Assembly: GCF_008000815.1 (NCBI RefSeq)
Contig: NZ_CP042806.1
Location: forward strand, 4,650,001-4,714,000
Reading direction: 5' to 3'
DNA: 64,000 bases
DNA from: Terriglobus albidus
GTDB lineage: Bacteria > Acidobacteriota > Terriglobia > Terriglobales > Acidobacteriaceae
How positions within the stretch are numbered: position 1 is the first letter of the stretch; the number at the start of each line of letters is the position of its first letter. The position numbers and the translations under genes were made by a program. Below are positions 5,174 through 51,277 of the stretch, in pieces. The notes beneath the pieces are model-generated. The model had not been told where the DNA came from, searched no databases, and worked only from the letters and a program-made list of their open reading frames with translations.

Positions 5174-8100
5174 TCAAAAGCGCAGGCGGCCGACGATCAG
5201 CAGCGAACGCGGATCCTGTGCTCCCGTTACCTGACCGAAGTTCGCGTTGCTGATGTTAGTGCCAAGTCCAGAGAACTGCGGATGATTGAAGGCGTTATGC
5301 GCGTCTACACGAAGTGCGAACACGACACGTTCTCGTAGAGGTATCTCCCGCATCACGCTCAGGTCCCATACATTCTGGCCCGGACCATAGAGCGCCGCAC
5401 GCGGCGAGTTACCCAGCGTATTCGGCGGAGTGAGGGCAAAGGCGGAGGTATTGAACCACTTCTGAACGGTGCGCGAACCTCGCGAGATGTTCGGATCGCC
5501 AACCTTGGTGACATACTGGGCGCCGGAGAAGATGCCCAACTGGTTTGCCTGCGTAATGAAGTACGGATAGCCCTTCTGGAACTGAGCCACCGTGCTTACC
5601 TTCCAATGACCGATCACCTGTGAAAGTACCGGGACATTCTGCAGGTACTTGCCTCCCGCGCCAAACGGAGGTGCATAGACCGTCGACAGCGAGAAGCGCT
5701 GAGGGATATTGTTCATTGCCGTTCCCCACTGCGCCCGCAGATTGTAATAGTTCTGTACTCCCACGGCATTCGCACGCGAAGGTCCATCCACGTCGTCCAG
5801 CGAACGCGCCCAGGTGTAGGCAGCGCGCACAGAGACACCGTTGCTCCAGCGATGGCTCAGCGTCGCATACATGGCGGCATAGGAGGTAGCGCCTCCGTTT
5901 TTCAGCGCTGTTACCGTCAGGAACTGCGGGTAAGGACGCAGACTTTGCGCCGTGCTCAATCCGAAGCAGCAGTTTGCGGACGGCTGAATCTGATTGATGG
6001 GCACGCTGATCGGCAGATGCACGCCGTGATTGCCGGCGTAGTCGACCTCTGCGATCCAGTCATGACCCAGGTCATGCTCGACGCCGAACTGCCACTCCTG
6101 CAGATAGGGCAGCACAGCGGTCTGAGGTAGTTGTGTCGGACTGAACGAAGGCTTGGTCAGGCTGGTTGGAATCAACGGGTTTCCATTCGCATCAGCGTTC
6201 GGGCTATAGGGAGGAACACCCTGGCTCAATTGGAAGGGTGCGGTCACGCCCGGATTGGAGCTCTGGAAGCTGACTGCGACCGTCGAAGCCGAGGTAAGCC
6301 CTGCCGTGCCAAAACCAATGCTGGGCAGTTGATAGATACCGTATCCGCCACGAACCACGGTCTTGCGGAAGAGCCGGTAGTTGAAGCCTGCGCGCGGCAG
6401 AATGCCCGTATAAATATTCGGGATCAGGCTATGAGGAGCACCGTTATATCCCGCAAACTGGATACCGCCAAGCTTGTTGGTGGTGGGATCGGTGATGTTT
6501 GGATTGAACGTGTACATGTTGTTGTGCTTCTCAGAGAACGGACCGTCAAACTCATAGCGAAGGCCGAGGTTGATGGTCAGCTTCTCTGAGAGCCGGTAGT
6601 CGTCCTGGATATAGCCGGTGAAGTAGTTGAGATTCTCGTGGAAGATCGTGTTGGTTGTGCTGATGCTTGCGCTTGCAGGCAGACCGAGTTCGAGATCGGT
6701 AATCCCCAGACCGGACTGGCCATTCGCCGTGCTAAAGGTTCCCGTGAACCCATAGCTGCCGGACAGGACTCCGGGTGTGTAGTAGCTATAGGCGTAACGC
6801 ATGACCTCGCCGCCGATCGAGAGGGTGTGACGGCCAAGCTGCAGCGCCACAGCATCGTTCACAATGATGTGACCGTCCCTCGTCTTGGCGTAAGAACCCG
6901 CGCCAAAGCTGGCGAACTGCGTCGTGGAGATGCTGGGAAACTGCGTCAGCGGCACACCCTTCAGACCAATCTCAGCGGGGGCCGGCTGAGGCCGGCTGAA
7001 GTTCTCTTCCGAGACGTAGCCGATACGAGCCTCGTTCGAGATACGCGGAGAGAAGATGTGGCTCCAGGACATCTCATAGTGATCGTCAACCCAACCGTTT
7101 ACTGCTGAAGTATTCGCCGCATTTGGAATGAACTGGACCGGCTGGTTGGTCGGGCCGTCACGCGAGAACTTTGCCCAGATGTGGTCATAGTCCGAGGCGT
7201 TGAAGTCGACACGATCGGCGTTGTAGAGATAGCTGCTGTGCGCCACCGGATTGACGCAGTAGTTGTTGGTCACGGCACCGACGGTATAGCTGCAGTTTGG
7301 CTGGGGAAAGAAGGAGAGGATGCTCATACCCACGGGATCAAGCCGATTGGTGGGAATGATATTGCCCTTGAACGCGGTCCTGCTGATCTTGCCGTTCGTA
7401 ACCACTGTCGTGTTCGGATCGTAGACAGTAGGTGTAGCGCCGCCCAGTGCGGAAGGTCCGGAGAAATCACCACTACGCTCTTCCACGGTGGGCACATTGG
7501 TGTTCAACGTGCTGGCTGAGTTATTCAACGTATTTTCCCAGTCCGTAAAGAAGTAGAGGCGATGCTTGCGTCCGTCAAAGATCCGCGGAATCCATACCGG
7601 TCCGCCCAGCGAGCCGCCAAAGTAGTTGAACGATTGCGCCGGAATCACCGCGTTTGGAGCCGTAAAGTAGCCGCGCGCATTCAGCGCCTGCGAGCTATAG
7701 GACTCAAAGGCCGAACCATGGAACTTGTCCGTTCCGGACTTCGTGGTCGTAAGAATAGCGCCGCCGCCCGTCTGACCGTATTGCGCTGAGAACGGCGACG
7801 TCAGTACCTGCAACTCTTCTGTTGAGTCGGGCGTAGGAATCAGACCATAGGTGCCATCGACGCCCATGTTGCTGGGCAGGCCATCGATGATGATGGGATT
7901 CGAGACCGGCCTGCCACCACCCAGCGAAAGGTTATTCACATTGGAGTAGTCCTGGCTGGTACTGGAGGCGCCCGCGAAGGTCTTGGTAATCAGAAACTCA
8001 TTCGCGCCCTTGCTTCCAGTCGTCTCCGGCAGATCGACCAGTTCCTGCCCGCTGAGCTCGCCGCCGATCTGCGCGTTCACGGTATTCAGCGTGTTGGAAT

Positions 8101-8647
8101 CGCCGGTGACCGTGACAACTTCAGAGGTGGCACCGGGCTTGAGCACCGTGTCGACGACAAGTTCCTGGTTCAACACCAGGTTTTGAGCGTTCGTCACGTA
8201 CTGGGCAAAGCCGCTCCTCTCAAAGCGGACCGTATAGCTGCCCGGCTTCAAGAAGGAGACACGATAGGCTCCGGACTTGTTCGTTACCGTCTTGTAGTCC
8301 GTTGCCGTGCTGTTCTCATGCACAGTGACGGCGACGTCGGGAATCACGGCTCCATCCGCATCCTTAACAAGGCCGCTGATCGAGGCATAGAAGGTCTGCG
8401 CGAAGACAGGCCCACTCGACAACAGCGTGCAACACAGCACGACTGCGGCGAAGAGCAGCCCTGATCTCCTGCCGTCTCCTCTGGAGCGGCGCAGGCTGGC
8501 GAGAGTATTTTTCCTGTAAGTGTGAAGTAGGGCTTCCGCGTCTATGGGCGTTTTCCGCAATGAAAACGCCGCTGCACGCCCCTTCCGGGATACCCAGCAA
8601 CAGGGAAAATGCTCTAGTACATGGGAGAAAGAGATGGTGCGGTTCAT
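5174..8647 (-). CDS. Oar-like TonB-dependent outer-membrane receptor with a repeat-derived N-terminal leader
   Basis: 1157 residues. In order: an unusual leader (about 1-60), a hydrophobic signal core GLLFAAVVLCCTLLSSGPVFAQ, a carboxypeptidase-regulatory-like domain (about 88-175, SISGLVKDADGAVIPDVAV), a plug domain (about 190-320, with PIIIDGLPSN and AQYGQTGGGAI), then a large beta barrel ending in a terminal Phe (IVGRLRF). This is the acidobacterial Oar/CarboxypepD_reg receptor type, used for uptake of large substrates, often glycans; the ligand is not known. Start ATG 8647 has GGAGA 5 nt upstream. Residues about 11-47 are translated from a 116-bp dispersed repeat, and no alternative ATG lies between that repeat and the signal core. 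Upstream of, and probably co-transcribed with, the GDPD gene. Confidence 0.9.
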   Translation of the reverse strand: MNRTISFSHVLEHFPCCWVSRKGRAAAFSLRKTPIDAEALLHTYRKNTLASLRRSRGDGRRSGLLFAAVVLCCTLLSSGPVFAQTFYASISGLVKDADGAVIPDVAVTVHENSTATDYKTVTNKSGAYRVSFLKPGSYTVRFERSGFAQYVTNAQNLVLNQELVVDTVLKPGATSEVVTVTGDSNTLNTVNAQIGGELSGQELVDLPETTGSKGANEFLITKTFAGASSTSQDYSNVNNLSLGGGRPVSNPIIIDGLPSNMGVDGTYGLIPTPDSTEELQVLTSPFSAQYGQTGGGAILTTTKSGTDKFHGSAFESYSSQALNARGYFTAPNAVIPAQSFNYFGGSLGGPVWIPRIFDGRKHRLYFFTDWENTLNNSASTLNTNVPTVEERSGDFSGPSALGGATPTVYDPNTTVVTNGKISRTAFKGNIIPTNRLDPVGMSILSFFPQPNCSYTVGAVTNNYCVNPVAHSSYLYNADRVDFNASDYDHIWAKFSRDGPTNQPVQFIPNAANTSAVNGWVDDHYEMSWSHIFSPRISNEARIGYVSEENFSRPQPAPAEIGLKGVPLTQFPSISTTQFASFGAGSYAKTRDGHIIVNDAVALQLGRHTLSIGGEVMRYAYSYYTPGVLSGSYGFTGTFSTANGQSGLGITDLELGLPASASISTTNTIFHENLNYFTGYIQDDYRLSEKLTINLGLRYEFDGPFSEKHNNMYTFNPNITDPTTNKLGGIQFAGYNGAPHSLIPNIYTGILPRAGFNYRLFRKTVVRGGYGIYQLPSIGFGTAGLTSASTVAVSFQSSNPGVTAPFQLSQGVPPYSPNADANGNPLIPTSLTKPSFSPTQLPQTAVLPYLQEWQFGVEHDLGHDWIAEVDYAGNHGVHLPISVPINQIQPSANCCFGLSTAQSLRPYPQFLTVTALKNGGATSYAAMYATLSHRWSNGVSVRAAYTWARSLDDVDGPSRANAVGVQNYYNLRAQWGTAMNNIPQRFSLSTVYAPPFGAGGKYLQNVPVLSQVIGHWKVSTVAQFQKGYPYFITQANQLGIFSGAQYVTKVGDPNISRGSRTVQKWFNTSAFALTPPNTLGNSPRAALYGPGQNVWDLSVMREIPLRERVVFALRVDAHNAFNHPQFSGLGTNISNANFGQVTGAQDPRSLLIVGRLRF
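8501..8616 (-). repeat. 116-bp palindromic dispersed element, copy A (inside the TonB receptor 5' end)
   Basis: Read on the minus strand it begins TAGAGCATTTTCCCTGT, carries the inner hairpin GGCGTTTTC/GAAAACGCC, and ends ACAGGAAAAATACTCT. It is collinear with the copies at 11176 and 47568 and of the same length. Here the whole element is translated as part of the receptor leader. Confidence 0.85.
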
Positions 8648-9717: not shown

Positions 9718-11178
9718 ATGCCATCGCTACGGACCAGCGAACTGGAATCACACGGCGTTGAGGAACATGTCGCGGCGGCGCTTGCGAAAACGCACGACTT
9801 TTTCACGCCCGATATCCCAGTGTTGCTTGCGCGCGCCCCTGGACGGCTGGATGTGATGGGCGGCAACGTCGACTATACCGGCGGCGCGGTCCTGCAGGGT
9901 CTGCTGCAGGAGGCAGTATGGGCAGCCTGCCAGTTTCGCTCTGACGAGACCGTGCGGGTGCTCAATCCCGGCGCTGCTCGTTATGGCTGGAAGACACGTT
10001 TCGAGCTCAACCTGAGCGAGTTATCCGATGCAAGTGCCATACAGGCAATGTGCAACGCAGAGGAAGGCAGCTTCTGGGGACGCTATGTCCTGGGAGCCGT
10101 TTACTTTCTCAAGAGTCACTTCGAAGGCACTGGAGCACTGGATACACCAGGCGGCCTCAACCTTTTCCTCCACTCCGACCTTCCGCCTAACAAGGGAGTC
10201 AGTTCCTCGGCTGCGCTGACCATCGCCGCACTCAAAGCCATCTCTGCCGCCTGGGGCATTCCACTCAGCGCCGTGGCCCTGGCAACCGCGGGGCAATGGG
10301 TTGAGAACGTTGTCGCCGGAGCCGCGTGCGGCATCATGGATCAGGCCGCGATTGTGCTGGGCAGAGACAGCCATCTCCTTCCCATACTCTGCCAACCATG
10401 TCTTCCCTCCCCTGCCATCGCTCTGTCCGACGGTCTTCGGATATGGGGCATCGACTCGATGGCCCCGCGCTCCACCACCGGCACTGCCTATGAAACTGCG
10501 CGTGCAGCGGCGTTCATGGGATACCGCATGATCTGCGAGAAGGAAGGACTTGCAGTCAGCCCCGATGCAAGCTCAGACATTCCACGCTGGGTTGATACAC
10601 GCTGGAATGGTTATCTTTCCAATGTGCCTCACCCAGTGTTCCGCACGTACCACGAGCATTGGCTTCCCAAGTCTCTCTCGGGCCATGAGTTCCTTGAGCG
10701 TTACGAAGAACACATCGACCCCTTCACGGCGATTGAGCCTACGCGCGAGTATCCAGTGCGTGCAGCAGTCCGCTACGCCGTCGAAGAGAATTTCCGGGTG
10801 CGGATGGCAAGTTCGTTGCTCGAAGCCACCGCATGGGATGTATCGGAGAGCTCTCTGCAGTTGATCGGCAAGGTCCTCTGCCAGTCACACCATGCCTATT
10901 CCGAGTGCGGGCTCGGATCGAAGGAGTGCGATGACCTGGTAGACCGGGCGTTGAAGGCAGGCTTTCCAGGGGCAAAGATGACCGGTGGGGGCGCCGGAGG
11001 CGTCGTCGCCATTCTTGGCCGCACGGAGGACCGTAGAAAATTCCTCAGACTCGCGGAAGAATACGCTCGCGACCGCGGCGCAACTCCGCACATCTTTGAA
11101 GGCAGTTCCGATGGGACCGATGCCTTCGGTCTACGTACGCTGCAGTTCAAAACCGGCAAGGGATGGGTGTGTTGCTAG
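9718..11178 (+). CDS. GHMP sugar kinase, galactokinase / L-arabinokinase-like
   Basis: 486 residues. Motif 1, APGRLDVMGGNVDYTGGAVL (about 40-60), is the GHMP sugar-recognition segment and reads closer to plant L-arabinokinase than to classical galactokinase. Motif 2 (ATP loop) is PPNKGVSSSAALTIAA, and motif 3 is GAKMTGGGAGGVVAILG near the C-terminus. The enzyme should phosphorylate C1 of a free sugar in the cytoplasm. Galactose, L-arabinose and N-acetylgalactosamine are all possible; an AgaS-like isomerase and a DeoR regulator nearby make an amino sugar worth testing. The stop codon TAG (11176-11178) is the first triplet of repeat copy B, so the last residues GWVCC abut that element. GAGGCAG precedes the start. 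Confidence 0.85.
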   Translation: MPSLRTSELESHGVEEHVAAALAKTHDFFTPDIPVLLARAPGRLDVMGGNVDYTGGAVLQGLLQEAVWAACQFRSDETVRVLNPGAARYGWKTRFELNLSELSDASAIQAMCNAEEGSFWGRYVLGAVYFLKSHFEGTGALDTPGGLNLFLHSDLPPNKGVSSSAALTIAALKAISAAWGIPLSAVALATAGQWVENVVAGAACGIMDQAAIVLGRDSHLLPILCQPCLPSPAIALSDGLRIWGIDSMAPRSTTGTAYETARAAAFMGYRMICEKEGLAVSPDASSDIPRWVDTRWNGYLSNVPHPVFRTYHEHWLPKSLSGHEFLERYEEHIDPFTAIEPTREYPVRAAVRYAVEENFRVRMASSLLEATAWDVSESSLQLIGKVLCQSHHAYSECGLGSKECDDLVDRALKAGFPGAKMTGGGAGGVVAILGRTEDRRKFLRLAEEYARDRGATPHIFEGSSDGTDAFGLRTLQFKTGKGWVCC

Positions 11179-12215
11179 AGCATTTCTCCTGTTGCTGGGT
11201 ATCCCGAAAGGGGAGTGCAGCGGCGTTTTCATTGCGGAAAACGCCCAAAGATATGGAATCCCCACACTACACCTACAGGAGAAATGCTCCAGCACGCGCT
11301 TTCGGCCGAGGCCAATTTCTCGGCGCCATTCTGATGCTGCTGACCGCAAATCTTTTGTGGGCCGGCCAGGGAGTTGCTGTAAAGCTACTCTCGGGCAGTC
11401 TTGGACCATTGGCGATCGCTCTTTTCCCGCTCTACTGCATCACTCTTCTCGGACTAGGAACGCTTGCCATCCATCGCAACCTCGCGGAACGATTTCGCGC
11501 TGCGTGGAGATACCGCCGCGACTTCTTTCTTGCCGGTATCTGCGGACAGCTTATGGCTCAGGTCGGCATGACACTCGGCGTCAGTTGGTCCACCGCCTCT
11601 AATGGCGCGATCCTAAGCCTTTTGATTCCCATCTTTGGCGCCATCATTGCTGTCTGGCTGCTGCGTGAACGGCTTTCCCTGCTTCGTGTAAGCGCTCTGC
11701 TGATGGGATTTGCCGGAGTCATCCTGCTGTCACCGATTCATCGGGCCACCAGCCCCGGCACCCGCATCCACGAGATCGCCGGCAACTGGCTTATCGCCAT
11801 CGGGTGCTTCGGCTCTGCGTTTTACAACGTGTATTCCAAGCGTCTTCTCGAATACTTCAACGGACTTGAGACCCTCTTCTTCAGTTACCTGTCCACGACG
11901 GTCTTCAGCCTTCCCGTACTCTTTCTGCTGGAGCCGAACTGCGTGCGTAACCTGTCTCACCTGACCATGACACAGTGGAGCGCATTCGGCTATCTCGCCA
12001 TCTTCCTCTACGGCGTTTCGATGGTGCTCTTCCTCCGCGCTCTCGAATCGGTGGACACCATCCTCGCATCGGCCTCGCTCTATCTGATGCCGATCTTTGG
12101 TGTAGCCCTGGCCTTCGGCATCTTGAGAGAACGCATCGCTCCGCACGCCCTGCTCGGCTCAGGAATCGTGCTCTTTGCGACTCTCATCCTCTTCCGCTAC
12201 GACTACGCAATCTAG
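11169..12215 (+). CDS. EamA/DMT-family membrane transporter with a repeat-derived N-terminal leader
   Basis: About 348 residues, ten predicted helices in two EamA halves (first half from GAILMLLTANLLWAGQGVAVKLL; second from EIAGNWLIAIGCFGSAFYNVYSKRLLEYF). Family members export or import small metabolites and sugars; substrate unknown. Start GTG 11169 is preferred because AAGGG (11158-11162) lies 6 nt before it; ATG 11163 is in the same frame but touches that site, and ATG 11253 inside the repeat has no ribosome-binding site. With either upstream start, about 40 residues come from repeat copy B. The start overlaps the end of the kinase gene, suggesting coupled translation in one operon. Confidence 0.83.
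   Translation: MLLEHFSCCWVSRKGSAAAFSLRKTPKDMESPHYTYRRNAPARAFGRGQFLGAILMLLTANLLWAGQGVAVKLLSGSLGPLAIALFPLYCITLLGLGTLAIHRNLAERFRAAWRYRRDFFLAGICGQLMAQVGMTLGVSWSTASNGAILSLLIPIFGAIIAVWLLRERLSLLRVSALLMGFAGVILLSPIHRATSPGTRIHEIAGNWLIAIGCFGSAFYNVYSKRLLEYFNGLETLFFSYLSTTVFSLPVLFLLEPNCVRNLSHLTMTQWSAFGYLAIFLYGVSMVLFLRALESVDTILASASLYLMPIFGVALAFGILRERIAPHALLGSGIVLFATLILFRYDYAI
11176..11291 (+). repeat. 116-bp palindromic dispersed element, copy B
   Basis: The terminal arms GAGCATTTCTCCTGT (11178-11192) and ACAGGAGAAATGCTC (11275-11289) are perfectly complementary over 15 bp. The inner hairpin is GGCGTTTTC (11222-11230) / GAAAACGCC (11237-11245). Its first three bases stop the kinase gene; the rest is open in the frame of the following EamA transporter. 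Confidence 0.9.
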
Positions 12216-32323: not shown

Positions 32324-32347
32324 ACACGCTAGCGATCCTGAAGACCT

Positions 32348-32396
32348 CTAGAAGGTCTTGAGGAACTCGATCAACGCACGCTTGTCATCATCGGAT
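32348..32396 (-). pseudogene. Remnant of the 3' end of a cytochrome gene, duplicate of 34176-34224
   Basis: On the minus strand this reads SDDDKRALIEFLKTF then TAG, the same C-terminus and stop as the large cytochrome gene ending at 34176. The DNA differs at only a few positions over about 49 bp. It ends abruptly at the junction with a second gene remnant. Confidence 0.75.
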
Positions 32397-32460
32397 GGCC
32401 AGGGATATATCTATCTGCATGCGGTTGGCATCGAGACGGCGCCGTTCTGAGCGCGAATAG
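32397..32460 (+). pseudogene. Remnant of the 3' end of a DinB gene, duplicate of part of 31130-31193
   Basis: Reads GQGYIYLHAVGIETAPF then TGA, against GQGYVYLRALGIEPPPFWERD in the intact gene; the Trp codon TGG has become TGA, and the DNA continues to a TAG aligned with the old stop. There is no start or upstream body. Confidence 0.75.
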
Positions 32461-34168: not shown

Positions 34169-34175
34169 ATCGTCT

Positions 34176-36710
34176 CTAGAAGGTCTTGAGGAACTCGATC
34201 AGCGCGCGCTTGTCATCATCGGATAGCCCTGGCTCGCCCTCGCCCGTCAACATATCCGTGCCGAAGTAGTGGCCCTTGTTCACAACAAAGTCAGGGCACT
34301 TGTTGAGCCTGATCAGATCCGGCTCAACGTTGGCGAAGATGTGATTGATCTCTGCATCGCTGGCGCCGTCGCCGATCTTCTTCAGGTCTGACTTGATCTT
34401 GAGTACCAACCGGATCGCCTGGAGATTGTGTTCAAAACGACCCCAGCTGCTGCTGCTGTCACTCATCAGGTTCAGGTTTGCGAGCAGGCTGACAGGCGTC
34501 CCCGCAGGGATGGGACCTAGCTGAATGCCGTCCTTACCAAAGAGCCATGGCGCCAGCGCATGCGCGACCTCTGGATGGCTGGAGAACGGTTCCGGCAGAT
34601 AACCCGCGCCTGCTGTCAGATACGAGCGCTGCGTCGTGCGGTCGACAGTCCCTGCAAGCTTGTCTGGAAGGACGCTGTCCTTCTCCCTTGTCTCAGGCCA
34701 TAGGAGCTGATGAATCGCATCGTTGAACTCCTTCATGCGCTCATCGACTCCTGGATCGGGGCTTGGCCCAATGCGATAGTAGTTTGAGTTGTTCCCGACC
34801 GTGTTGTTCAGCAGGAATGGCGCCGTTGACCAGACGCTGATCAAGCTTGGGACGCGCGTGTACCCTCGGCCACCCGCCGGCATCTGATAACTCGATGTTT
34901 TGCCGGTGTAGGGATCCTGCACATCGATCGAACCAACTGAAGGCAGATCCTTGTAACTCTGCGACGTGAAGTTGTCCCAGATATTGCCACCAAGACCGTT
35001 TGTTGCCAGGGGACTGCACGCGTTGGTCTTCAGCAAAGTGACCGGTATCCGGGCGTCCGTCGAAAGGAAGTTGTTGTCCAGGAAGTCATCCCGCAGCACA
35101 ATATCCCGCATTGCCTTCTTGAACTCCGGCGTCTTCGTCCACGCCCAGTATTTATTCCAGCAATCGAGGTAGTTCTTCCCTGCGCATCCCTGCAGGCTCA
35201 CGGCGTTCGGAGTCTCCGGCAGCTTGCTGGAGTGGCACCGCGCGCAGCGTTCCGCAAAGACCTCCTTACCGCGTGTCAGCACCGCCTTATCTTTAGTCAG
35301 GTAGACTGCGCCGCCAGGAGCATCCGCAAGATGGTGCGCATCGGAGCTCTTCAACATAAATAACGCCAGATAGGGCGTCTGCTGCTCATTGGCCACCCAG
35401 TAGCTTGAGTTCTTCCGGGCCACCGCGATCTCGATCGGAGTAACTTTTTTGCCGCCGATCAATGCATTGAAGTGCTGCAGCCACTCCTCGCTGAACATGC
35501 CGATGTTCAGGTACACGCGATTCAACGCGCCCAGAGCTCCTACGGAGTCCGCGCCGTCTTTCAACACGTGCGGCGTATAGACGATGTCCGGAGCCTGGAA
35601 GAACTTCGTCAGCTCATTGCCGGGCGGAAGAACGTCGTTGAACTGTTTGTTGTTCAGTCCGCCGCCGGCCAGCGTCTCTTTCCCCCAGCGGCTACCCTGC
35701 TCGAGGCGCGCCTTCAGGCCATAGACCGCATTCATCGTCCGCGGATTGTTGATGTTGTCCGTGGAAACCAGTGAGGTATCCAGCGAACCAGGCCGCGATG
35801 TATGGAAGAGTTGATAGACAAAACTCGTGTGGTCGCCATCCCAGCGGAAGATACGATCGATCCAGAAGTACTGCGCACCAACCAGCGAGCTGAGGTTCTC
35901 CCACTTCGGATTGTTCGTGTCAGCAGGCGGCTTCAGCGGATTAGGGCCTACGTGGCAGAACCCGCACGACATGCCAACGCGATATGGCCGGACCAACTTT
36001 GGATCGTTGTAGTAGCTCGGGTCGGTGTAATAGCGGTTGGCATCCCAATGCCGCTTTGCCTCTTCGTCGAAAGCGGGATTCGGAAACAAACGTAGACCGA
36101 CAATGCCGGTCGGGTACCCATAGTACGACCCCACCTCAACGGTCTTTCCGCGCGCTCCGATCTGCACGCCTGGATACTTTTTCTCATCGGCATAGGGATC
36201 CGCCGGGCAGTTTGGATCTCTCACATCCAGCCACAAGCCAAATCTGTTCGGATCCGGTCCCGTGGCCTTCTGGAAACACGGCTCGTTGATCAGACCGAAA
36301 TACGCCCAACGGTTATCGCGAGTTCCTTTCAACGCAGGATGGTCTGAGATGGTCTTCAGGAAGTCGAGCGCACCGAAGCTCTTGACCGAGATCACGTCCC
36401 AGAAGCGATCGTTTCCGCCGCTCCATACGATCCAGTTGTTGCGGCCCTTGATCTCTTCGGCGCTGAGCTTGATGCCTCCATCCATGTCATGGAAGTAGTC
36501 ATCGTCCGCGGCCTTGAAACTCTCCGGTGCTCTTCCTGCCTGAGCGGCTTCGTCTTTTAATTTTCCTGTTTTGGAACGCGTAAAGGCAAAGAAGGCGGAG
36601 ACAACAACCACCAGCGCAATCGCCACGAGAGCGACGAGGGACAAAAGAATCGTGCGCCAGATGCTTCTGCGCGGTTCCATATCTTCCATATCGCGATCAA
36701 AATCGCTCAT
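34176..36710 (-). CDS. Large membrane-anchored c-type cytochrome (di-heme, cytochrome c peroxidase-like)
   Basis: 844 residues. A single N-terminal helix (about 18-42, ILLSLVALVAIALVVVVSAFFAF) after a short acidic/basic cytoplasmic tail anchors a periplasmic domain. Two heme motifs: CGFCH with HVGPNPLKPP behind it, and CARCH in FAERCARCHSSKLPE. Both are typical of di-heme peroxidase-like proteins; the region GLGGNIWDNFTSQSYKDLP and the C-terminal LSDDDKRALIEFLKTF fit a cytochrome-c tail. The start overlaps the end of the GMC gene by 4 nt, so electrons from that flavoenzyme probably pass here (inference). Its extreme 3' end has a degenerate duplicate at 32348-32396. Confidence 0.85.
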   Translation of the reverse strand: MSDFDRDMEDMEPRRSIWRTILLSLVALVAIALVVVVSAFFAFTRSKTGKLKDEAAQAGRAPESFKAADDDYFHDMDGGIKLSAEEIKGRNNWIVWSGGNDRFWDVISVKSFGALDFLKTISDHPALKGTRDNRWAYFGLINEPCFQKATGPDPNRFGLWLDVRDPNCPADPYADEKKYPGVQIGARGKTVEVGSYYGYPTGIVGLRLFPNPAFDEEAKRHWDANRYYTDPSYYNDPKLVRPYRVGMSCGFCHVGPNPLKPPADTNNPKWENLSSLVGAQYFWIDRIFRWDGDHTSFVYQLFHTSRPGSLDTSLVSTDNINNPRTMNAVYGLKARLEQGSRWGKETLAGGGLNNKQFNDVLPPGNELTKFFQAPDIVYTPHVLKDGADSVGALGALNRVYLNIGMFSEEWLQHFNALIGGKKVTPIEIAVARKNSSYWVANEQQTPYLALFMLKSSDAHHLADAPGGAVYLTKDKAVLTRGKEVFAERCARCHSSKLPETPNAVSLQGCAGKNYLDCWNKYWAWTKTPEFKKAMRDIVLRDDFLDNNFLSTDARIPVTLLKTNACSPLATNGLGGNIWDNFTSQSYKDLPSVGSIDVQDPYTGKTSSYQMPAGGRGYTRVPSLISVWSTAPFLLNNTVGNNSNYYRIGPSPDPGVDERMKEFNDAIHQLLWPETREKDSVLPDKLAGTVDRTTQRSYLTAGAGYLPEPFSSHPEVAHALAPWLFGKDGIQLGPIPAGTPVSLLANLNLMSDSSSSWGRFEHNLQAIRLVLKIKSDLKKIGDGASDAEINHIFANVEPDLIRLNKCPDFVVNKGHYFGTDMLTGEGEPGLSDDDKRALIEFLKTF

Positions 36711-47542: not shown

Positions 47543-49216
47543 ATGATGTTTTCGAAACGCCGCATTCTAGAGCATTTTTCCTGTTGCTGGGTATCCCGGA
47601 AACCGCATGCAGCGGCGTTTTCATTGAGGAAAACGCCCATAAATTCAAAAGCCCTGCACTACACCTACAGGAAAATTGCTCTATCGGGTCTTCTCTCGGT
47701 TGCAGGCGCCGTGGCGGCCTATGCCGCACCCGCCTCCCATGGGCACGTTGTGCTGGTGTTACCGTTCGACAACCGCTCAGGGCAGACGGGCCTGAACTGG
47801 ATCGGCGATTCCTTTCCGGAGATGCTGAACCAGCGTCTCTCTTCTTCCGGTTTTCTGACCATCAGCCGCGACGATCGGATGTATGCCCTCGATCATCTCG
47901 GTTATCCCCTGGATCTGAAACCCAGCCGCGCCACCGCATTGCGGATTGCACAGACGCTGGATGCCGATCTCATCGTCATTGGCAGCTTTACCATGCAGGG
48001 TGACCATCTGGCCGCGCAGGCGCAGGTGCTGGACGTCAACAAGCTCTCGATGTCCAAACCTATCGAGGAGTCGGTAGACAAAAACCGGTTCTTCGATCTC
48101 GAGAACGCGGTCGCCTGGAAGATTGTGAAAGAAGTGGACCCTTCCTTTCCCGTGGCGGAGCAGACCTTTCTGGCGCAGAGCGCCTATGACAAGCTGGAAG
48201 CCTTTGAGAGCTATGTCCGCGGCGTCTCGGCACAGACGCCCTCAGAGCGCCTTAGGCGTCTGAAGACCGCCGTCTCGCTCTCGCCTGACTATGCCGCCGC
48301 AATTTTGGCGCTGGGAAAGGCGCAATACGCGCAGGGACAGTTTGAAGAGGCTGCGGCTACGCTGACCAAGCTGCCACAGAACAATCGCCTGGCGCTGGAA
48401 GCGAACTTCTACCTCGGCCTGGCCAACTTCAACTCCGGCCAGTATGCAGCGGCAGAGACTGCGTTCGGTTTTGTCGCCAGCCGTCTGCCTCTTCCTGAAG
48501 TCGTCAACAACCAGGGAGTCGCGGCCAGCCGCCAGGGGAAAGACGCCGGAGCGCTGTTTCAGCGCGCCTCCATGGCTGATCCCAAAGATGCCGATTACCA
48601 CTACAATACCGCGACTGCGCTTTTTCAGCGCCGCGACTTTCCCGGAGCGAAGGCCGAGTTGCAGAAGACCCTCAGCCTGAAACCGGCTGACGCTGAAGCT
48701 CCCTTGCTGCTGCAGAAGGTCGATAATCCATCCGTCGATTTCGAGGCCCTGCCACGTGTCCGCCGGACCTACTCGGAGTCCGGATTCCGTCAGGCCGCCT
48801 TCGAACTTGAACAGATGCGGGCCATGCAGACAGCGACCCTGCCGCCAGCCAAACAGTCAGAAGCGCTTGTCCAGCAGGGACAGGACTACCTGCAGCAGGG
48901 TCTGGTGCTTGAGGCTGAGCGTGAGTTTCAGTCGGCGCTGCAGATGGACTCGACCTCAGCCGCCGCACACATCGGCCTGGCGCAGGTACGCGAACGCAGC
49001 GGTACTACCGCGGAAGCCCGGAGCGAGGCCGAAGCCTCTCTCAAACTGAAACCCAACGCCGCAGCCTACCTGGTTCTGGCCCGAATCGAACTGGGCGCCG
49101 GAGAGCTTCCCCAGGCGGCGAACGACGTGAGCAATGCCATGCGCATTGAGCCAAGTAACGCGGCAGCCATCGCTCTGAAACAGACCATCATCAGCCGGGG
49201 ACAGCCGGTGCAGTAA
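47543..49216 (+). CDS. TPR protein with TolB-like N-terminal domain and a repeat-derived N-terminal leader
   Basis: 557 residues from ATG 47543 (or 47546). Residues about 10-47 (ILEHFSCCWVSRK...) are translated from repeat copy C; its last residues YRK form the positive n-region directly before a signal-peptide-like core IALSGLLSVAGAVAAYAA. Next comes a TolB/FlgO-like domain (about 65-170, VVLVLPFDNRSGQTGLNWIGDSFPEML). The rest is TPR repeats (LGKAQYAQGQFEEAAATL, LGLANFNSGQYAAAETAF, TALFQRRDFPGAKAELQK, GQDYLQQGLVLEAEREFQ). Probably exported; role unknown. In one run with the glycosyltransferase and the NfeD-like gene. Confidence 0.82.
   Translation: MMFSKRRILEHFSCCWVSRKPHAAAFSLRKTPINSKALHYTYRKIALSGLLSVAGAVAAYAAPASHGHVVLVLPFDNRSGQTGLNWIGDSFPEMLNQRLSSSGFLTISRDDRMYALDHLGYPLDLKPSRATALRIAQTLDADLIVIGSFTMQGDHLAAQAQVLDVNKLSMSKPIEESVDKNRFFDLENAVAWKIVKEVDPSFPVAEQTFLAQSAYDKLEAFESYVRGVSAQTPSERLRRLKTAVSLSPDYAAAILALGKAQYAQGQFEEAAATLTKLPQNNRLALEANFYLGLANFNSGQYAAAETAFGFVASRLPLPEVVNNQGVAASRQGKDAGALFQRASMADPKDADYHYNTATALFQRRDFPGAKAELQKTLSLKPADAEAPLLLQKVDNPSVDFEALPRVRRTYSESGFRQAAFELEQMRAMQTATLPPAKQSEALVQQGQDYLQQGLVLEAEREFQSALQMDSTSAAAHIGLAQVRERSGTTAEARSEAEASLKLKPNAAAYLVLARIELGAGELPQAANDVSNAMRIEPSNAAAIALKQTIISRGQPVQ
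47568..47683 (+). repeat. 116-bp palindromic dispersed element, copy C
   Basis: The arms TAGAGCATTTTTCCTGT (47568-47584) and ACAGGAAAATTGCTCTA (47667-47683) are complementary but for one position. The inner hairpin GGCGTTTTC ... GAAAACGCC is retained. The element is wholly inside the coding frame of the TPR protein. Confidence 0.88.
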
Positions 49217-50396: not shown

Positions 50397-51173
50397 ATGG
50401 CTGACGCCGTGGCCCGGTGGATACCATCTCCTGTTATGAGCACCGTGGTCGACGACCTGGATCTGCAACCCGCGCGGAAAGATCGCGAAATTCATCTCAG
50501 CACCGGCTCGGTGCTGGGCATTTTCTTTGCTGCCGCTTTAATCTGTGCCCTGTTCTTCGGCTTCGGCTATACCGCCGGCCGTCGCTCCGCGATTGCCACG
50601 CCCGCCGAACAGAGTGAAACCGGCAGCAACTTCAGTAATTTCAAGCCGGCGCCCGGAGCGGTTGCGATTCAGCCGGTCCCCGGTTATCTCTCGGCAAAGC
50701 AAGCGGCAGACGCCAACGCGAATACCGGCACACAGCAGTATTACGGCGCTGCCGGCAATACCACTGCGCAGACACAGCCTGCCGTTACCGTCGCGAATGC
50801 TGATACCACGCAGAAGCCATCTCAGCCTGTAAAGACGTCGGCTCCCACACCGGAGACCGTACCAGCGCCCGCACCCGCACCGCGTGTGGCTGCCACCGTC
50901 GCTCAACCCCAGGTACCGGCAGTACAGCCAGTGTCACTGCCGACGACGCAGTCTCAGGGACCGGCCATCGTGCAAGTTGCCGCAGTCTCGCACCAGGAAG
51001 ATGCGGAGGTGCTGCTGAGTGCATTGAAGCGGCGCGGCTACGCGGTCTTTACGACCTCGGCTCCGACAGATCACCTGATCCACGTGCAGCTCGGGCCGTT
51101 TTCCAACCGCAAGGACGCAGAAGCAATGCGTCAGCGTCTGCTCTCAGACGGCTATAACGCCATCGTCAAATAG
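50397..51173 (+). CDS. SPOR-domain membrane protein
   Basis: 258 residues from ATG 50397 (ATG 50436 is possible). One membrane helix (about 44-65, LGIFFAAALICALFFGFGYTAG), a Pro/Ala/Thr-rich periplasmic linker of about 110 residues, and a C-terminal SPOR domain (about 185-258, AIVQVAAVSHQEDAEVLLSALKRRGY, HVQLGPFSNRKDAEAMRQRL). SPOR domains bind septal, stem-poor peptidoglycan. The TAG stop (51171-51173) is the first triplet of repeat copy D. Confidence 0.85.
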   Translation: MADAVARWIPSPVMSTVVDDLDLQPARKDREIHLSTGSVLGIFFAAALICALFFGFGYTAGRRSAIATPAEQSETGSNFSNFKPAPGAVAIQPVPGYLSAKQAADANANTGTQQYYGAAGNTTAQTQPAVTVANADTTQKPSQPVKTSAPTPETVPAPAPAPRVAATVAQPQVPAVQPVSLPTTQSQGPAIVQVAAVSHQEDAEVLLSALKRRGYAVFTTSAPTDHLIHVQLGPFSNRKDAEAMRQRLLSDGYNAIVK

Positions 51174-51277
51174 AGCATTTTCCCTGTTGCCAGGTATATT
51201 CCGGAAAAGGAGTGCAACGGCGTTTTCATTGCGGAAAACGCCCATAGATGCGGAAGCCCTACAGGGAAAGTGCTCCA
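51171..51277 (+). repeat. Palindromic dispersed element, copy D (107 bp, shortened)
   Basis: TAGAGCATTTTCCCTGT at the left and ACAGGGAAAGTGCTCCA at the right form the terminal arms; GGCGTTTTC/GAAAACGCC is intact. It has a 2-nt insertion and an 11-nt-scale loss near the right arm. Provides the stop of the SPOR gene and, on the other strand, the last codons and stop (51259-51261) of mpl. Confidence 0.85.

What the first reader, a model, noticed from the sequence alone, without database searches (positions are those of the whole stretch)
11176..11291. New-looking 116-bp palindromic repeat family with compensating arm changes
Four copies are found at 8501-8616, 11176-11291, 47568-47683 and 51171-51277, three of them 116 bp long. 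All start TAGAGCATT, end in the complementary sequence, and keep the inner hairpin GGCGTTTTC/GAAAACGCC. Between copies the arms change in matching pairs: CTCCTGT/ACAGGAG in copy B, TTCCTGT/ACAGGAA in C, CCCTGT/ACAGGG in D. Such co-variation suggests pairing is under selection (a small mobile element like a MITE or REPIN, or an RNA structure). No transposase-like gene is linked to it here. Whether the family is described elsewhere cannot be told from the sequence alone.
Basis: partly seen in the sequence, partly recalled or inferred. Interest (0 to 1): 0.78.

Follow-up and report, generated by a model that had tools for sequence, protein, structure and literature searches.

The report
Mobile palindrome that lands in stop codons
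A 116-letter palindromic DNA element is repeated well over a hundred times in a soil bacterium's chromosome, often exactly at the stop signals of genes, which its own ends restore; a related species lacks it at many of the same spots, so it moves, but the enzyme that moves it was not found.

Summary
The four window copies belong to a large family: 150 of 150 scored candidates match in the window's genome, and 40 copies lie in a contiguous 624 kb. It is mobile. Of 17 empty sites in related genomes with a gap of exactly 2 bp, 12 are a single TA. One copy was found nested inside another at TA.

Not expected from the finding:
(1) The target is asymmetric, roughly WY-TA-KCS, and the element lies in one orientation to it.
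(2) 32 of 77 copies have an end TA inside a called gene's stop codon, against 12% expected, and the end regenerates TAG. Of 40 junctions in the genome lacking the copy, 16 lie within 6 bp of a gene end.
(3) Other Acidobacteriaceae genera carry the same architecture, mostly 113-118 bp, with different but still paired letters.
(4) Paired arm changes were not seen in place (0 in 11 pairs from 9 sites) but separate closely similar copies. This points to rewriting at transposition.

No mobilising enzyme was found among the IS630-, DDE_Tnp_1- and Y1-type genes examined. I call it a new MITE-like superfamily with unusual target choice; enzyme and mechanism are open.

The parts
8501..8616 (-). Copy A of the element, 116 bp; its left end (at 8616) reads TAGAGCATT, its right end is decayed (GAGAGTATT on +). 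It lies between divergent called genes; in T. albidus the empty junction falls 63 bp inside the called start of the - strand gene
8547..8570 (-). Inner hairpin of copy A (GGCGTTTTC-ATTGCG-GAAAACGCC), at the element's centre
   Evidence: positions 47-70 of the element
11176..11291 (+). Copy B, 116 bp; starts inside the stop codon of the upstream ORF; right dinucleotide CA; T. albidus has an empty TA (TAA stop) here
11176..11192 (+). Left outer arm of copy B (TAGAGCATTTCTCCTGT)
11222..11245 (+). Inner hairpin of copy B
11275..11291 (+). Right outer arm of copy B (ACAGGAGAAATGCTCCA)
9718..11178 (+). ORF of 486 aa whose stop codon TAG is supplied by the left end of copy B (function not tested)
47568..47683 (+). 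Copy C, 116 bp, intergenic; shared with G008 and G012, absent from G015 and G017
47614..47637 (+). Inner hairpin of copy C
51171..51277 (+). Copy D, 107 bp; inserted in the TAG stop codon of the upstream ORF; filled in G015, empty (single TA) in G008 and G012
51219..51242 (+). Inner hairpin of copy D
50436..51173 (+). ORF ending in the TAG of copy D; the orthologue in the empty genome G008 ends in TAG at that junction (function not tested)

Best explanation
A non-autonomous mobile DNA element (MITE-like), about 116 bp, with 17-bp terminal inverted repeats and a central hairpin. Shown: it is repeated at least 150 times, is present or absent at the same site in related genomes, inserts at a dinucleotide that is usually TA, can nest in another copy, and lies in one orientation to an asymmetric target (about WY-TA-KCS). 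Shown: copies are enriched in stop codons, where the end (TA+G) restores TAG, and the empty junctions seldom fall in gene interiors. Inferred: an enzyme supplied in trans recognises the folded form (outer stem plus central hairpin) and acts with strand polarity. Inferred: in a folded intermediate the two arms are copied from or repaired against each other, so a mutation in one arm appears in both after the next move. Inferred: stop-codon sites persist because the host gene still ends in the same place.
For: Copy number: 150 of 150 scored candidates, worst E 1.3e-29; 40 copies, partial ones included, in 624 kb of this genome and 64 in 615 kb of T. albidus. Empty sites: copy D is a single TA in G008 and G012; of the 17 sites with a gap of exactly 2 bp, 12 are TA. 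Loss: copy C is shared by G000, G008 and G012 but missing from G015, whose flanks there are closest to those of G012 (no species tree was built). Nesting at TA: L151. Target asymmetry in 77 non-tandem copies: Y before the left TA 61/68, R after the right TA only 36/62, Fisher p 4e-5; A at +2 in 1/62. In copies not at stop codons: W 27/31, Y 29/31, K 22/31, not A 30/31, S 29/31. Stop codons: 32/77 against 12.4% expected, p 1.4e-10. Empty junctions in the other genome: 16 of 40 within 6 bp of a called gene end, 21 non-coding, 1 at 7-30 bp from an end, 1 near a start, 1 interior by 63 bp. Further genomes: 19 of 34 copies. Structure: arms paired in 94.4% of cells with 26 both-side changes against 7.3 in shuffles (0/500); hairpin centred at 57.5-60 in 21 of 21 superfamily members. 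Arm rewriting.
Against: No mobilising gene was found. The orientation of 150 copies shows no clear bias along the chromosome, which a lagging-strand single-strand mechanism might show. TA at both ends is also what ordinary DDE transposases give. In 5 of the 17 exact sites the empty dinucleotide is not TA, and at several sites a non-TA dinucleotide equals the right-hand one of the filled site, so whether TA is duplicated or carried by the element is unresolved. The arm-rewriting step rests on 9 orthologous sites, some of them found with a pattern that required an intact left arm. In one search one of five measures (further pair types, 13 against 11.9) does not exceed the shuffles (152/500). The central-hairpin search had no shuffled control, and one of its stems (L293) is weak.
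Confidence: 0.65

Rival explanations
1. Ordinary MITE moved by a TA-targeting DDE transposase (IS630/Tc1-mariner type or an IS5-group enzyme) that is now lost or lies elsewhere; matched arms are simply subfamilies.
For: 17-bp inverted ends, TA at both ends, nested TA insertion. RUP is thought to be moved this way by IS630-Spn1 (PMC2229807, passages). Among 81 G000 rows compared (79 distinct copies), no pair of distinct copies exceeds 96.6% identity, so the source may be extinct.
Against: The one IS630-type element (2 copies) has other ends; so do the 10-copy DDE_Tnp_1 group and the inverted repeats seen in one locus of each of the other two groups. Two near-identical ends should not sense an asymmetric target. 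Arm type is only weakly linked to the interior: 49% same type against 37% by chance. The central hairpin keeps its place and shape while its letters change.
Confidence: 0.3
2. Moved by one of the resident Y1 (HUH) transposases, as REPINs are by RAYTs or as TIR elements are by TIRYTs.
For: Strand polarity and hairpins fit; 7 Y1 genes are in G000; a TIRYT group of Acidobacteria is described (PMC3733652 section 16).
Against: All seven Y1 genes of G000 have their own flanking inverted repeats, by eye unlike this element. Y1 genes occur in 17 of 19 genus genomes, 12 of which gave no R1 match, and the high-copy G012 has only one. The ends carry no GTAG tag, although GTAG occurs inside the element on the complementary strand.
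Confidence: 0.1
3. A structured RNA or terminator kept in place by selection, dispersed only secondarily.
For: Arms plus hairpin change less than the rest of the element in orthologous copies (15/292 against 28/279, p 0.04; 18/646 against 52/605 in the larger, partly biased set). Many copies lie at gene ends.
Against: Many sites differ between species; no matched changes in place; copies face genes in all four arrangements; no Rfam match.
Confidence: 0.1

Closest known systems
ERIC / IRU / RU-1 of enterobacteria
   Same: 127 bp, TA at both ends, terminal inverted repeat, target duplication, intergenic copies (PMC2229807, passages and table)
   Different: No sequence comparison with ERIC was run; 17-bp arms here against 7 bp in that table; asymmetric target and stop-codon enrichment here; other phylum
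RUP of Streptococcus pneumoniae
   Same: 107 bp, TIR, TA target, about 110 copies (PMC2229807, PMC3049150, passages)
   Different: RUP shares its ends with IS630-Spn1; no such partner found here
REPIN / RAYT and TIRYT elements
   Same: Hairpins, many copies, strand polarity expected (the last recalled, not from a call)
   Different: Resident Y1 genes have other flanking repeats; no GTAG at the ends; precise TA ends
Correia/NEMIS elements of Neisseria
   Same: 107 or 155 bp, 24-bp TIR, terminal TA (PMC2229807 table and passages)
   Different: No central conserved hairpin or stop-codon habit in the passages I saw

Membership tests
MITE (non-autonomous inverted-repeat element) | Under 300 bp, no coding capacity, terminal inverted repeats | tested here: met
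   116 bp, 17-bp arms paired; one frame can be open through a copy, but 116 bp cannot encode a transposase
MITE (non-autonomous inverted-repeat element) | Filled and empty sites | tested here: met
MITE (non-autonomous inverted-repeat element) | Target site duplication | tested here: inconclusive
   TA at both ends and a single TA when empty at 12 of 17 exact sites; non-TA cases leave open whether TA is duplicated or carried
MITE (non-autonomous inverted-repeat element) | Ends shared with an autonomous element | tested here: inconclusive
   None found among the IS630, DDE_Tnp_1 and Y1 loci examined in G000; other transposase families were not searched. The one long end pair looked at in G123 was two mini-elements
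IS630/Tc1-type MITE (as RUP) | Ends match an IS630-type element | tested here: not met
   window's genome only
REPIN (RAYT-mobilised) | GTAG-tagged REP pair and a cognate RAYT flanked by it | tested here: not met
   ends TAGAGC. The GTAG and RAYT criteria are from PMC3733652
IS200/IS605-type single-strand element | Oriented insertion next to a short target, no duplication, hairpin ends (criteria recalled) | tested here: inconclusive
   Orientation met; absence of duplication unresolved; no enzyme
Any Rfam family | Match to a covariance model | tested here: not met
   Only a tRNA in the window at gathering scores; no hit at E up to 5 for copy B

The most novel reading that the evidence does not exclude
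A superfamily of folded-DNA mobile elements, seen so far almost only in Acidobacteriaceae, moved by an undescribed enzyme that reads the cruciform or single-strand fold with strand polarity. Insertion favours stop codons and heals them (TA + G gives TAG). Each move homogenises the two arms through the folded intermediate, which would explain matched arm changes without selection on RNA pairing.
Probability: 0.35. Interest if true: 0.82.

Novelty: new variant of a known kind. Interest (0 to 1): 0.62.

Why it matters
Matched changes in inverted repeats are often read as evidence for selected RNA structure. Here the same sites compared across species suggest that such changes can instead be produced by the element's own movement. 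Landing in stop codons and restoring them is a simple route for a repeat to spread widely without breaking genes. The oriented target also gives a handle for finding the missing enzyme.

Tried and rejected
IS630 (PF13358): 2 matches, copies of one element 99.9% identical over 1165 bp, ends unlike the repeat. DDE_Tnp_1 (PF01609): 15 matches in three groups by open-frame length (10, 4 and 1). Copy-to-copy comparison gave ends for the 10-copy group only; in one locus each of the other two groups I listed inverted repeats and TAGAGC-type ends and found none like the element. Y1 (PF01797): 7 in the genome, each with its own flanking repeats. Other transposase families were not searched. A 3.2-kb pair of ends in G123 looked autonomous but was two mini-elements.

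An excess of CA at the right end in the first 40 copies was dropped, because those copies were picked by similarity to copy B, which ends in CTCCA; the unbiased set shows no clear excess. Orientation along the chromosome: no clear bias. A text search for the element's letters found 72 papers; of the 10 listed none is about this family. Further searches on Acidobacteria repeats, ERIC and stop codons showed no description in their listings. That library lacks most subscription papers, and ISfinder was not available.

'No copy inside a gene' is partly by construction, since a broken gene would be called as two pieces. I therefore classed the empty junctions in the other genome, which do not have this problem.

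Automatic 'filled/empty' classes contain chance cases. I used only the five orthologous filled pairs named for unbiased rates, and read the exact 2-bp empty sites one by one (recounted). The 191-row alignment holds at least two duplicate rows and some orthologous copies; 30 of its 191 rows had unequal or rare arm types and were left out. Of 104 copies detected, 27 were dropped before the 77-copy counts (weak or missing ends, odd length, or tandem neighbours).

Full report
Observation. The four copies exist as described, with copy A inverted and partly decayed at one end. Exact end motifs TAGAGCATTTNNCCT occur 138 + 110 times in the 6.4-Mb genome and not at all in the reversed control. A covariance model of 49 copies (A1, R1) matched 150 of 150 scored candidates, the weakest at E 1.3e-29, out of 3501 first-look candidates. 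The true number is therefore probably above 150. A contiguous 624 kb holds 40 copies and 615 kb of T. albidus holds 64, partial and tandem copies included; by extrapolation that is roughly 400 and 600 per genome.

Distribution. Among 120 genomes 13 match, the window's own included. Only G000, G008, G012 and G015, all of one genus, reach the scoring limit of 30. The exact end motif is in 25 of 250 genomes of the family, 13 of 79 genera, with one control hit in all. A broader model (R2, 21 sequences) matches 18 of 396 genomes of the phylum, 5 of 210 genera, all in the same family. Two weak R1 matches lie in another family of the class.

Mobility. At copy D, G008 and G012 have a single TA where G000 and G015 carry the element. 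At copy C the element, with shared private mutations, is in G000, G008 and G012 and absent from G015, whose flanks there are 94% identical to those of G012. The simplest reading is a precise loss, but no species tree was built. In the 624/615-kb survey the automatic classes were: own 13 filled, 15 empty, 9 other, 3 not placed; T. albidus 11, 25, 18 and 10. Seventeen empty sites have a gap of exactly 2 bp: 12 TA, 3 CA, 1 GA, 1 CG. A copy of a sister subfamily (B) sits inside a family-A copy at an internal TA in L151, and neighbouring copies can share one TA (L033; L065).

Target. In 77 copies with clear ends and no tandem neighbour (of 104 detected), the bases outside the left TA are W (52/68) and Y (61/68); outside the right TA they are G/T 45/62 at +1, A only 1/62 at +2, and G/C 53/62 at +3. 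Intergenic TA sites show no such preference for the base before TA. If the target were symmetric, R after the right TA would be as common as Y before the left TA; it is 36/62 against 61/68 (p 4e-5). Orientation is defined by the interior sequence alone. Copies not in stop codons show the motif at least as strongly; where the left end is a stop codon, Y is 10 of 15.

Stop codons. With an in-house ORF caller, 32 of 77 copies have an end TA that is the first two bases of a called gene's stop codon. Motif-weighted TA sites outside coding sequence predict 12.4% (p 1.4e-10). The ends supply TAG 32 times and TAA once. Because an insertion could also truncate a gene, I looked at the genome that lacks the copy. 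Of 40 empty-class junctions, 16 lie within 6 bp of a called gene end, 21 are non-coding, 1 lies 7-30 bp before an end, 1 within 60 bp of a start, and 1 (copy A) is interior, 63 bp from the called start. For 16 stop-associated copies with an empty-class orthologue, 13 have a gene end TAG (7) or TAA (6) within 40 bp of the junction, ten of them at junctions with a gap of -2 to 3 bp; the other three do not. Of 34 copies in other genomes (33 from other genera, one from the same genus; three pairs near-duplicate) 19 end a gene the same way. In an earlier, partly overlapping set 1 of 137 copies lay inside a called gene. Whether the enzyme prefers stop codons or such insertions merely survive is not settled.

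Structure. Twenty-one superfamily members of 115-118 bp pair their arms in 94.4% of cells (shuffled mean 87.3). Eight of 17 pairs have both-side changes (3.7 in shuffles) and 26 cells change on both sides (7.3), each 0/500; the number of further pair types is not above the shuffles (13 against 11.9, 152/500). Sliding the partner destroys the signal. A central hairpin was found in all 21, centred at 57.5-60, with different stem letters that still pair; no shuffled control was run for it and the stem of L293 is weak. Two related loci are longer: L259 126 bp and L120 159 bp. Rfam has nothing like it.

How arms change. In 191 family-A rows the arm pairs 11/106 and 12/105 are mostly T-A or C-G, with other combinations in 11 and 22 rows. 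Copies whose interiors are 92.5-97.5% identical share the arm type in 143 of 291 comparisons, where chance is 37%. So both arms switch together often on the scale of paralogous divergence. In 11 orthologous pairs at 9 sites no matched change occurred; there were 9 one-sided changes, all in the right arm (copy C counted in three pairs), 9/273 in the hairpin, 52/605 in the rest of the interior and 300/3235 in the flanks. Part of that set was found by a pattern that demands an intact left arm. In five pairs free of this bias, arms plus hairpin changed at 15/292, the rest of the element at 28/279, non-coding flanks at 76/577 and coding flanks at 224/2397. I infer that matched changes are made when the element moves, most simply by repair or copying within a folded intermediate, and that structure may in addition be mildly constrained in place.

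Mobiliser. IS630-type, DDE_Tnp_1 and Y1 genes of the genome were examined and none examined has these ends. The DDE_Tnp_1 ends were defined by copy comparison for only one of three groups, and other transposase families were not searched. Y1 genes are spread through the genus without clear relation to copy number. Among 81 G000 rows compared, the most similar distinct copies are 96.6% identical, so activity may be old and the enzyme lost.

Papers. I read section 16 and passages of PMC3733652, passages of PMC2229807 and of PMC3049150; all others were seen only as listings with the start of their abstracts. The IS200/IS605 mechanism is recalled knowledge, not taken from a call.

Noticed in passing
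G008 contig C39: 265262-265720, 268760-269102, 464512-464856, 274735-274949, 124972-125203, 337172-337401: Head-to-tail arrays of 2-4 element copies sharing one TA, same orientation within each array; units after the first begin TA-RYC-GCATTTT instead of TAGAGCATTTT. At 464512 the junction repeats the downstream flank ATCGCA, suggesting local tandem duplication; the others are unexplained.
   Followed up: partly
L023:2944-3058, L048:18103-18254, L151:249-362, L139:2065-2180: A sister subfamily (B) with arms ending TCCTAA and an inner stem around TGCCG/CGGC; some copies carry an extra hairpin (about 152 bp).
   Followed up: partly
G000 orthologue of G008:C39:684532: A different mini-palindrome of about 37 bp (TAGGGCGTG...CACGCCC) occupies the place that holds the 116-bp element in T. 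albidus; pieces of similar sequence occur inside L136.
   Followed up: no
L152:1305-1420; G008:C39:537832: Copies whose central hairpin is a longer palindrome, as if one half had replaced the other by fold-back copying.
   Followed up: no
G000:C1:4190543 / G008:C39:140080; G000:C1:4596403 / G008:C39:537832: The same site appears to carry clearly different element copies in the two species, suggesting repeated use of preferred sites.
   Followed up: no
window 5174-8647: The long - strand ORF stays open through copy A, so that its start could fall upstream of the element and add an element-encoded stretch.
   Followed up: no
L298-L307 (G000): A 10-copy insertion sequence whose terminal repeat contains TTTGCGGAAAAACGC, reminiscent of the element's central TTGCGGAAAACGC; possibly chance.
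   Followed up: no
window 32346-32400 and 34174-34228: A 55-nt direct repeat, 95% identical, 1.8 kb apart, unrelated to the palindrome.
   Followed up: no
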